This document shows, in pieces, positions 54,414 through 56,165 of a DNA stretch of 64,000 nt. The notes beneath the pieces were generated by a model. That model did no database searches. It was not told where the DNA came from and saw nothing but the letters and a program-made list of their open reading frames with translations. The translations under genes and the position numbers were made by a program. The first letter of the stretch is position 1; each line of letters opens with the position of its first letter. This DNA comes from Enterobacter chengduensis (GTDB lineage: Bacteria; Pseudomonadota; Gammaproteobacteria; Enterobacterales; Enterobacteriaceae). Location of the stretch: contig NZ_CP043318.1 of NCBI RefSeq assembly GCF_001984825.2, forward strand, positions 310,001 to 374,000, given 5' to 3'.

Positions 54414-54566
54414 TTAGCCTGCGTTGCAGGCTAATTTAGCCGCCACCTCCTGATGTTCACCCTTTATTGAAAACTCGCATAACTTACCGCGAGTAATAAA
54501 GGTAAAGATCACTATCGTCAGGCAAATAATAAAGACGATACCTAACGCAGTTTTTAATGGCGTCAT
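54414..54566 (-). CDS. Hok/Gef-family toxin peptide
   Basis: 50-residue membrane peptide of the Hok type: MTPLKTALGIVFIICLTIV as the transmembrane helix, then FTFITRGKLCEF with the family-typical cysteine, then GEHQEVAAKLACNAG, which parallels GHREVAAFMA of R1 Hok. AAGGAGT lies 8 bases before the ATG. The leader upstream keeps the inverted GAGGCTACTC/GAGTAGCCTC stem of hok mRNAs but is interrupted by IS150 at 54642. The toxin would depolarise the membrane if translated; it is now cut off from its own promoter. Confidence 0.85.
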   Translation of the reverse strand: MTPLKTALGIVFIICLTIVIFTFITRGKLCEFSIKGEHQEVAAKLACNAG

Positions 54567-54578
54567 GCCTTTTACTCC

Positions 54579-54641
54579 TTGTCAAAAAAAGAATAAGAGG
54601 CTACTCTCAACCTGTTGGGAGTTGAGGGAGTAGCCTCGGGT
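54579..54641 (+). ncRNA. 5' part of a sok-type antisense RNA, cut by IS150
   Basis: A promoter-like TTGTCA (54579) and TACTCT (54602) with a 17-base spacer reads toward GAGGGAGTAGCCTCGGGT, the hallmark of Sok antisense RNAs opposite the hok leader. The RNA would continue through GGTAAATG and a CCCGGGGCTT terminator, but that half now lies at 56085, beyond IS150. Assignment is by analogy to the R1 and chromosomal hok/sok loci. Confidence 0.55.
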
Positions 54642-54667
54642 TGTACTGACCCCAAAAAGTTGGACAG

Positions 54668-55519
54668 TTAAACACGAGGCACATAGGTCTGGGTTCGATA
54701 TTCAATTGGACTCAGACCTTTTAATTTCAGGCTAATTCTTCTGCTGTTGTAGTAGTCAATATATTCCGTAACAGCATCCTTCAGTTCGCTTATATTACTG
54801 AACTCGTCAAGATAAAAACACTCCGACTTTAAGGTTCCAAAGAAACATTCCACGACTGCATTATCCAGACAATTGCCTTTTCTGGACATGCTCTGTGTAA
54901 TGCCTTGTTCTTTAAGGATGTTTTGATACCTTCTCATACGATACTGCCATCCCTGGTCAGAGTGCAGAATAGGATGCTCGTGAGGCTTAAGCTTTTTGAA
55001 TGCCTGATCGAGCATATTCTCGACCATGTTCATCACAGGTCTTTCCGACAGGCTGTAAGAAATAACTTCGTTGTTGAAGAGATCTATTACTGGAGACAAA
55101 TACAGCTTTCGCCCATTGACTGCAAATTCAGTAACGTCGGTAACCCACTTCTCGTTTGGCCGTGTAGCCTTGAAATCCCTTTGGAGAACATTGGGGGCGG
55201 TTTGCCCTACCTCTCCTCTGTAGGAGCTGTATCGCTTGACCTTAATCGCTGCCTTAAGCGAGAGGGTTCCCATCAGGCGCTGAACGGCTTTATGGTTAAT
55301 CCGTTCCCCGTCTCGATGGAGAGACAACGTTACCCTACGGTATCCGTAACGACCTTTATTCTCGTGATAAATCTCACCAATACGCTTTTTAACATCCGCA
55401 TACTTATCAGGCTTGCTGAGAGCCTTTAGATGGTAATAAAACGTACTGCGCGGTATCTCCGCTGCCTTGAGAAGCTCATCAAGAGGGTAAAACTGCCTTA
55501 GCTCGTTGAGTACTTTCAC
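54668..55519 (-). CDS. insK: IS150 OrfB (InsK), transposase catalytic part
   Basis: Integrase-type domain (DDE) of IS150, 283 residues, near-identical to E. coli InsK. The HTH_21 region (YGYRRVTLSLHRDG) precedes the rve core with DVTEFAVNGRKLYLSPVIDLFNNEV (first Asp), HSDQGWQY (second Asp) and NAVVECFFGTLKSE (Glu). It is normally made as an OrfAB fusion by -1 frameshifting at AAAAAAG (complement of 55549-55555). Confidence 0.96.
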   Translation of the reverse strand: MKVLNELRQFYPLDELLKAAEIPRSTFYYHLKALSKPDKYADVKKRIGEIYHENKGRYGYRRVTLSLHRDGERINHKAVQRLMGTLSLKAAIKVKRYSSYRGEVGQTAPNVLQRDFKATRPNEKWVTDVTEFAVNGRKLYLSPVIDLFNNEVISYSLSERPVMNMVENMLDQAFKKLKPHEHPILHSDQGWQYRMRRYQNILKEQGITQSMSRKGNCLDNAVVECFFGTLKSECFYLDEFSNISELKDAVTEYIDYYNSRRISLKLKGLSPIEYRTQTYVPRV

Positions 55520-56037
55520 TTTTTCGCGGGATGAGCTAAGGCTTTCAGCTTTTTTAGATACGTAAGCCGCATTTCAAGGAATCGAACTTGTCTTTCAAGA
55601 TCCTCAATACGTCGGTCTTTCGACAGCTCCAATGCTAACGCCGCTTTTTCTGGATCAACTGACATTGTAATGTTTCTTTTGGTGCCGATCTTGAGTGCGC
55701 GTAAACCAGCTTCTCCGTGCTCCTCATAGACTTTCAGCCACTTGGCTACAGAACCACTACCAGCAAGCATAAAGTGAGCAGCAGCCTGATTGAGGGACAT
55801 CTGCTGCTCGGTCACGGCTTTCACGACCTTAATGCGCAACTCTGGATCAGCACTAACGCCTTTAGGTTTGGGAATTAAACCTTTTTCTCCATGTTTTTCA
55901 TAGAGGGCAACCCACGTCCTGACCTGGGTTCGAGGCACACCAAAACGTGCAGAGATGATCCTGTAACCATCATCAGTTGTGAAGTAGTGATTCACGACTT
56001 CAAGGCGCTTTTCGAAGGGGTATTTTGGCTTTGACAT
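55516..56037 (-). CDS. insJ: IS150 OrfA (InsJ)
   Basis: 173-residue DNA-binding protein of IS150, near-identical to E. coli InsJ. It has two helix-turn-helix regions (YPFEKRLEVVNHYFTTDDGYRIISARFGVPRTQVRTWVALYEKHG; SLNQAAAHFMLAGSGSVAKWLKVYEEHG) and a C-terminal leucine-zipper-like coiled coil (IEDLERQVRFLEMRLTYLKKLKAL) spanning the frameshift signal. Its stop overlaps insK by 4 bases. Confidence 0.96.
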   Translation of the reverse strand: MSKPKYPFEKRLEVVNHYFTTDDGYRIISARFGVPRTQVRTWVALYEKHGEKGLIPKPKGVSADPELRIKVVKAVTEQQMSLNQAAAHFMLAGSGSVAKWLKVYEEHGEAGLRALKIGTKRNITMSVDPEKAALALELSKDRRIEDLERQVRFLEMRLTYLKKLKALAHPAKK

Positions 56038-56084
56038 ATCAGGGACTATTCCATTTCATCGTCCAACAAAATGGGTGCAGTACA

Positions 56085-56165
56085 GGTAAATGAAAATTTC
56101 CCGGGGCTTCCTACTTTCTGTCCCTCAACAATGCTCAAGACAGAAAGTCTTAAGCACCCGCCGCA
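56085..56165 (-). other. Distal part of the hok/sok leader, separated by IS150
   Basis: On the minus strand this reads CTTTCTGTCTTGAGC...GACAGAAAGTAGGAAGCCCC...AAATTTTCATTTACC, matching the order of landmarks in the R1 hok leader (CTTTCTG...CAGAAAG, AGCCCC, TTTTCATTAACC). The CTTTCTGTC/GACAGAAAG stem and the CCCGGGGCTT sok terminator lie here. The hok promoter would be further right, before fdhF. Confidence 0.6.

What the first reader, a model, noticed from the sequence alone, without database searches (positions are those of the whole stretch)
54414..56165. IS150 splits a chromosomal hok/sok toxin-antitoxin locus between yjcO and fdhF
A 1443-bp IS150 with a GGT target duplication sits between the Hok-type coding frame (54414-54566) and the distal half of its leader (56085-56165). 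Removing the IS and one GGT rejoins a leader with the landmarks of R1 hok mRNA. The insertion cuts the sok antisense RNA in its terminator hairpin and separates hok from its promoter, disarming toxin and antitoxin together. Several K-12 hok loci are likewise reported to carry IS insertions (IS186, IS150), which suggests repeated selection for silencing.
Basis: partly seen in the sequence, partly recalled or inferred. Interest (0 to 1): 0.7.

Follow-up and report, generated by a model that had tools for sequence, protein, structure and literature searches.

The report
Jumping gene homes to antitoxin terminator
A small mobile DNA element has split a toxin-antitoxin gene pair at one exact spot, and close relatives of that element land on the same spot in toxin-antitoxin genes of other gut bacteria and plasmids, so this looks like a landing preference rather than a one-off silencing event.

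Summary
A 1,443-bp IS150-group element (54642-56084, GGT duplication) splits a hok/sok locus between yjcO-like and fdhF genes. The Hok peptide passes Pfam's cut-off; 28 of 36 congeners show the uninterrupted locus. The element is identical to copies RefSeq calls ISKpn8 and 94.7% identical to K-12 IS150.

The interpretation changes. The insertion point, at the loop end of one arm of the sok terminator palindrome, is a recurrent target. In a scan of species genomes with an IS-end pattern holding no hok sequence, 12 of 14 readable insertions lie in a hok leader at this spot. E. coli hokA, hokB and hokC and plasmid hok loci are hit there too. Of 23 distinct sites with a duplication, 21 have RRGGC 4-5 bases beyond the IS end, including 6 of 6 outside hok. 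In print, trg-mokB is an IS150 hotspot in mutation-accumulation lines, and an evolved hokC insertion falls on the natural site.

Targeting, more than selection for silencing, best explains the pattern. The sok promoter and about 28 nt of sok stay beside hok (inferred), so 'disarming both' is only partly right. Expression was not tested.

The parts
54414..54566 (-). hok coding frame, 50 aa
   Evidence: Pfam HOK_GEF 43.1 bits, cut-off 22; homologue at the same place in 28 of 36 congeners
54579..54607 (+). putative sok promoter TTGTCA-N17-TACTCT
   Evidence: a looser string of this form in 25 of 28 intact congeners; not flagged by the promoter scan; function inferred
54614..54641 (+). retained 5' part of sok (about 28 nt), start inferred from promoter spacing
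   Evidence: inference
54632..54640 (+). 5' arm of the sok terminator hairpin (AGCCTCGGG)
   Evidence: 98.8% of cells pair in 28 intact congeners, 19 distinct
54639..54641 (.). target duplication GGT, copy 1
54642..56084 (-). IS150-group insertion sequence (ISKpn8 type), 1,443 bp
   Evidence: 100% identical to the copy on NZ_CP132225 annotated ISKpn8; 94.7% to MG1655 IS150
54668..55519 (-). orfB, rve integrase core
   Evidence: Pfam rve 98.2 bits
55516..56037 (-). orfA, helix-turn-helix
   Evidence: Pfam HTH_28 78.8 bits
54685..54719 (+). terminator-like hairpin just inside the IS, facing transcription from the sok promoter
   Evidence: 2 such sites found in the region, 2.2 expected in shuffles, so weak
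56085..56087 (.). target duplication GGT, copy 2
56100..56108 (+). 3' arm of the sok terminator hairpin (CCCGGGGCT), now 1.4 kb from its partner
56085..56159 (-). 5' half of the hok leader
   Evidence: Rfam sok RF01794 65.4 bits; 56085-56340 matches 32 of 36 congeners, 23 of them at 82-95% identity
56167..56194 (-). putative hok promoter TTTGCA-N16-TAAGAT
   Evidence: string of this form in 22 of 28 intact congeners; not flagged by the promoter scan; function inferred

Best explanation
An ISKpn8-type element of the IS150 group inserted by target preference into the sok terminator palindrome of a chromosomal hok/sok locus. SHOWN from sequence: insertion at the loop-proximal end of one arm of the sok terminator; a 3-bp duplication; RRGGC 4 bases from the IS end on the orfB side; the same site in many other hok loci, and similar motifs at some sites without hok. 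INFERRED: the IS150-group transposase recognises RRGGC, preferably in a G+C-rich terminator-like palindrome, so hok/sok loci on chromosomes and plasmids act as its main docking sites. INFERRED consequences here: the hok promoter now reads 75 nt of leader and enters the IS; hok keeps its ribosome-binding site but has lost its promoter; sok keeps its promoter and first ~28 nt but has lost its terminator, so its transcript would run into the IS. Toxin silencing is a by-product that makes the landing harmless, because antitoxin start and toxin gene stay on the same side.
For: (1) IS-end pattern scan with no hok letters: 15 stretches in the species-genome collection, 14 with a readable flank, 12 in a hok leader 18-23 nt from AGCCCC, all 12 in the same orientation. 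Those 12 flanks score 36-76 against intact hok leaders, each above all 200 of its own shuffles (highest 26); the two others score 14-16. Rfam sok: 4 of 12 above gathering, 7 below it at E 0.00025 or better, 1 (L078) at E 0.17. (2) Same spot in E. coli hokA, hokB and hokC and in G024. (3) ISKpn8 in one IncHI2A plasmid and IS150 in two others sit at the same base of near-identical hok leaders. (4) RRGGC 4 bases (19 sites) or 5 bases (2 sites) from the IS end in 21 of 23 distinct sites with a duplication, 6 of 6 non-hok ones included; 1.1% at random positions. (5) Four of those six are palindromes: L088, L101, L120, L121. (6) PMC5419217 Table 3 (passage) puts IS150 at 16,972 (hokC/nhaA) in 3 lineages; in REL606 this is the first base of the GGT duplicated in the natural hokC insertion. 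(7) PMC5289635: trg-mokB 'appears to be a hotspot', 2 aerobic and 8 anaerobic insertions, single-colony bottlenecks. (8) PMC4301190 Table 1: mokB 5 structural, 0 point alleles.
Against: No transposition assay was run. Of 14 readable species-genome sites 2 are not hok (L084, L088). Of 10 sampled plasmids 2 are not hok (L101, L104) and 1 (L108) lies by ybdK without a duplication; of the 7 with a hok leader, 3 (L100, L102, L103) show no Hok in the fetched stretch. Of 5 viral-contig stretches, 1 (L117) is beside a Hok but inverted and off the usual base, 2 are other palindromes, 2 neither. L107 lies 13 nt from the usual site and lacks the motif; L099 has it on the other side; L093 and the K-12-type hokA (opposite orientation) have neither duplication nor motif. 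L066 (in an OprD-family porin gene) and L104 have the motif but no clear hairpin. Published IS150 sites include many others, such as cycA in 13 lineages, brnQ, nadR and ldr (PMC5419217), and cas genes under selection (PMC10359306 passage); two ldr sites, mapped by assuming the hokB base, do not clearly show the motif. Hok leaders are homologous, so 21 of 23 is not 23 independent trials. mokB mutations were fixed in 50% of Lenski populations, so selection may add.
Confidence: 0.85

Rival explanations
1. Repeated selection for silencing: insertions arise widely, but those that disable hok/sok are kept because a chromosomal addiction locus is costly.
For: Several E. coli hok loci are interrupted by IS150 and flanked by an IS421-labelled element; PMC5419217 groups these as inactivation of redundant functions; PMC7232551 (passages) repeats that the K-12 hok loci are non-functional; mokB mutations fixed in 50% of Lenski populations.
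Against: Recurrence at one base and orientation; the same motif at non-hok sites; a hotspot in mutation-accumulation lines; no point alleles at mokB in the early samples; a mokB/trg insertion stayed at low frequency in PMC3576414 (passage); 28 of 36 congeners show the locus uninterrupted.
Confidence: 0.1
2. Survivorship: IS150 inserts almost anywhere, and only insertions in dispensable spots such as hok leaders persist.
For: Fresh IS150 insertions in genes such as cycA, brnQ and nadR are reported in evolved lines (PMC5419217 Table 3 passages).
Against: Genomes offer many dispensable bases, yet 12 of 14 readable sites fall on one spot; fresh experimental insertions also hit hok loci, at hokC on the natural base.
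Confidence: 0.04
3. Shared descent: one ancient insertion was inherited or spread with the hok locus, so the sites are not independent.
For: L061, L096 and L098 share the same K-12-type hokA insertion and the IncHI2A plasmids share one locus. In G024 the bases next to the IS are 95-97% identical to the window's, so transfer of the split locus is not excluded there.
Against: Different loci, genera, element types (66-100% identity) and, in hokA, orientations; ISKpn8 and IS150 at the same base of near-identical plasmid leaders; fresh insertions in evolving lines.
Confidence: 0.03

Closest known systems
IS1397 and ISKpn1 (IS3 family) inserting into REP/palindromic units
   Same: IS3-family element with high preference for a palindrome (PMC1525189, passages)
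   Different: Target here is the sok terminator of hok/sok plus a few other palindromes, on chromosomes and plasmids; whether any site is a REP unit was not tested
IS150 trg-mokB hotspot in E. coli B mutation-accumulation lines (PMC5289635)
   Same: Same element group and a hok locus (hokB)
   Different: The passages seen name one interval; here the target base, the motif and recurrence in many hok loci and genera are shown
IS150 in K-12 hokA
   Same: IS150 in a hok leader
   Different: Opposite orientation and no target duplication in MG1655
Tn7 at attTn7 (recalled)
   Same: A mobile element with a preferred, harmless site at a terminator
   Different: Unrelated machinery; no dedicated targeting protein was looked for here

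Membership tests
hok/sok type I toxin-antitoxin | Hok/Gef peptide | tested here: met
   HOK_GEF 43.1 bits, cut-off 22
hok/sok type I toxin-antitoxin | conserved leader (Rfam sok RF01794) | tested here: met
   Window half 65.4 bits, gathering 59; 20 of 20 congener loci given pass, one of them (L046, G024) itself split (L051-L060 were not given)
hok/sok type I toxin-antitoxin | antisense RNA terminator hairpin | tested here: met
   28 intact congeners, 19 distinct: 98.8% of cells pair; 2 pairs with changes on both sides, reached by 15 of 500 shuffles; moderate support
hok/sok type I toxin-antitoxin | intact leader joined to hok in this genome | tested here: not met
   Split by the IS
hok/sok type I toxin-antitoxin | toxin killing and sok antagonism | not testable with these tools
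   needs expression data
IS3 family, IS150 group | two overlapping frames, HTH plus rve integrase core | tested here: met
IS3 family, IS150 group | TG...CA ends, 3-bp duplication, high identity to IS150 | tested here: met
   94.7% to IS150, 100% to an ISKpn8-labelled copy, GGT
REP-targeting IS (IS1397/ISKpn1 type) | inserts into a palindrome | tested here: met
   sok terminator; L088, L101, L120, L121; not in L066 and L104
REP-targeting IS (IS1397/ISKpn1 type) | the palindrome is a REP/PU unit | not tested
   no REP library was used

The most novel reading that the evidence does not exclude
The sok terminator works as a family-wide docking site for IS150-group elements: plasmid addiction loci are stepping stones by which they, and cargo-bearing derivatives such as a 4.4-kb arsenic-resistance element found in a hokE-like leader, pass between plasmids and chromosomes. 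The site is safe because it cuts the toxin from its promoter while leaving the antitoxin's start beside it.
Probability: 0.5. Interest if true: 0.75.

Novelty: new variant of a known kind. Interest (0 to 1): 0.6.

Why it matters
It would explain why hok loci of E. coli are often broken without invoking selection each time, give a simple rule for where a common IS group lands, and link plasmid addiction modules to the spread of mobile elements. It also warns that 'inactivation of toxin-antitoxin systems' in evolution experiments can be target bias rather than adaptation.

Tried and rejected
Searching E. coli records by locus handle failed, so IS150 copies per E. coli genome could not all be listed. 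Junction counts in E. coli: 639 of 5,426 genomes reach 80% of the hokB-leader/IS query; the hokA queries for the two orientations give nearly the same number and may overlap, and the record and genome counts of the hokC query disagree, so these were not used as evidence. A plasmid search with the leader/IS junction found 2 of 1,720 matching records at 80%. The promoter scans did not flag the hok or sok promoters; those rest on homology. E. coli loci L063, L094 and L097 (and plasmid loci L062, L064) came from a listing that favours hok-like flanks, so they show recurrence, not frequency. Guessed REL606 coordinates for hokB, hokE, ldr and cycA did not hit those loci, because the published coordinates are of REL4536; hokB and ldr were fetched afterwards, hokE and cycA were not. 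PMC5658596, PMC10591226 and PMC4557228 (passages) were not relevant; PMC169884 and PMC135391 are not held.

Full report
WHAT IS THERE. The window holds, on the minus strand, a 50-aa Hok frame (54414-54566), a 1,443-bp IS (54642-56084) and the 5' half of a hok leader (56085-56159), between a yjcO-like gene and fdhF. The IS is flanked by GGT. Pfam gives Hok 43.1 bits against a cut-off of 22. Rfam's sok model matches the leader half above its gathering score, but on the hok-sense strand and partly on IS bases, so the name 'sok' there means the leader, not a direct hit to the antisense RNA. The IS is 100% identical to a copy RefSeq labels ISKpn8 and 94.7% identical to IS150 of MG1655.

UNINTERRUPTED RELATIVES. 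In 28 of 36 the Hok peptide lies next to the leader with no insertion sequence between, G024 carries an IS at the same nucleotide, and in 7 no complete locus was shown. All 20 congener loci given to Rfam pass the sok gathering score (10 of the 30 fetched were not given; one of the 20, L046 of G024, is split like the window). Promoter-like strings for hok and sok recur in 22 and 25 of 28. The sok terminator hairpin pairs in 98.8% of cells over 19 distinct sequences, with two pairs changed on both sides; shuffles reach that number of pairs in 15 of 500, so the support is moderate.

THE SITE IS A RECURRENT TARGET. A pattern taken only from the IS end was run once over the species-genome collection (84,980 genomes by the tool's description): 15 stretches, 14 with a flank, 12 in a hok leader 18-23 nt from AGCCCC, all in the same orientation. 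The exceptions are L084 and L088; L091 starts at the contig edge. Because 'hok leader' was first judged by eye, I scored the flanks against four intact leaders: the 12 score 36-76, each above all 200 of its shuffles; L084 and L088 score 16 and 14. Rfam sok passes gathering in 4 of the 12, reaches E 0.00025 or better in 7 more and only E 0.17 in L078. Hok itself was found in only some of these stretches, partly because contigs end in the IS. Some of these genomes are probably also those (the printed flanks of L069/L089, L070/L078 and L075/L086 agree), and some share a plasmid-type locus, so these are not 12 independent events; the exact pattern also misses diverged ends. A family-level search with the whole IS found it in 8 of 392 genomes. 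Of six elements with a readable orfA-side end, four are in hok leaders (L068/L075, L069, L070, L074) and two are not (L066, L072); L067, L071, L073 and L076 are partial or distant.

PLASMIDS, VIRAL CONTIGS, E. COLI. From 60 listed plasmids (1,601 of 72,556 records match) I took every fourth from H42 to H78, ten in all: seven in a hok leader (one of them, L107, 13 nt off the usual base), one by ybdK without a duplication (L108), two elsewhere. Three of the seven show no Hok in the fetched stretch. Five viral-contig stretches: one beside Hok but inverted and off the usual base (L117), two in other palindromes (L120, L121), two neither. In E. coli the usual spot is used in hokB (L094), hokC (L063) and hokA (L095), with one inverted hokA case at the same target (L099); the K-12-type hokA (L061, L096, L098) and a hokE case (L097) lack a duplication, and L093 is not hok. 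L062-L064, L094 and L097 were chosen from a listing biased towards hok-like flanks.

THE RULE. Over 27 distinct sites with both flanks, RRGGC starts 4 or 5 bases from the IS end on the orfB side in 23, and in 21 of the 23 with a duplication; random positions give 1.1% for offsets 3 to 5. The hok sites are homologous to one another, so the telling figure is 6 of 6 non-hok sites with a duplication (L066, L088, L101, L104, L120, L121); by hand, 0.0108 to the sixth power is about 2 in 10^12. The motif was noticed on these same sites, so this figure is not from a fresh set. L093, non-hok and without a duplication, lacks the motif. Four of the six are palindromes; L066, in an OprD-family porin gene, and L104 are not. 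Orientation at distinct hok sites with a duplication is 16 to 1.

INDEPENDENT EVENTS. One IncHI2A plasmid carries ISKpn8 and two carry IS150 at the same base of near-identical hok leaders. G024's IS differs from the window's at 1 of 1,443 bases, while yjcO is 83.5%, the fdhF side 89.3% and the hok-leader stretches 95-97% identical; this favours a separate insertion but does not exclude transfer of the split locus.

EXPERIMENTAL EVIDENCE IN PRINT. PMC5419217 (passages and parts of Table 3 seen) lists IS150 at 16,972 in hokC/nhaA in three lineages, at 16,989 in one, at hokE in one and at trg/mokB in five, beside other IS150 sites such as cycA in 13 lineages. Its coordinates are those of REL4536, edited from REL606; if no length change precedes it, 16,972 is the first base of the GGT that is duplicated in the natural hokC insertion. 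PMC5289635 (passages) reports trg-mokB as a hotspot with 10 insertions in lines bottlenecked through single colonies, of 50 IS150-mediated mutations. PMC4301190 (passages) shows 5 structural and 0 point alleles at mokB, and mokB mutations fixed in 50% of populations. PMC2891674 (passage) speaks of IS150's 'highly specific target site' without giving it.

MECHANISM. Shown: site, duplication, motif, palindrome, orientation. Inferred: transposase-driven targeting of a terminator-like palindrome; the toxin loses its promoter; sok keeps its promoter and first 28 nt and would read into the IS, where a weak terminator-like hairpin lies. No expression data were available.

KNOWN OR NEW. Palindrome-targeting IS3-family elements are known (IS1397, ISKpn1; PMC1525189, passages), and a hokB hotspot is in print. 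In ten searches of the held library (lists show 20 of 66, 15 of 192 and 20 of 33) I saw no listing that states the sok terminator as the target or generalises it across hok loci. Subscription papers are mostly not held, so this is weak evidence of novelty. Pedersen and Gerdes 1999 was seen only as cited in PMC7232551.

Noticed in passing
L089:2605-7037: 4,433-bp element with IS150-type ends and transposase, duplication ACC in a hokE-like leader, carrying ArsC, ArsB, ArsR-type and FMN-reductase (ArsH-like, recalled) genes: a cargo-bearing IS at the same site.
   Followed up: partly
L088:497-4947: 4,451-bp element in Pectobacterium brasiliense with IS150-type ends, passenger frames and no transposase recognised by eye among frames of 110 aa or more, in the centre of the palindrome GGCCTCT-TAA-AGAGGCC.
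   Followed up: partly
L110 and L097: An IS421-labelled element (IS186 relative, recalled) lies downstream of the hok frame in REL606 hokC and strain GF4 hokE: a second IS associated with hok loci, at another position.
   Followed up: no
L079 and L082: Two copies in [Erwinia] mediterraneensis hok leaders are longer than 1,443 bp (1,891 and 1,580 bp).
   Followed up: no
window 58063-58065: In-frame TGA in fdhF followed by HGPS, the expected selenocysteine codon of formate dehydrogenase H (expectation recalled).
   Followed up: partly
L120 and L121: IS150 copies in two viral contigs sit inside AGCCCC/GGGGCT palindromes with no Hok found in the stretch.
   Followed up: partly
L117: A viral contig has the IS beside a HokC-like gene (82% identity), inverted and off the usual base.
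   Followed up: no
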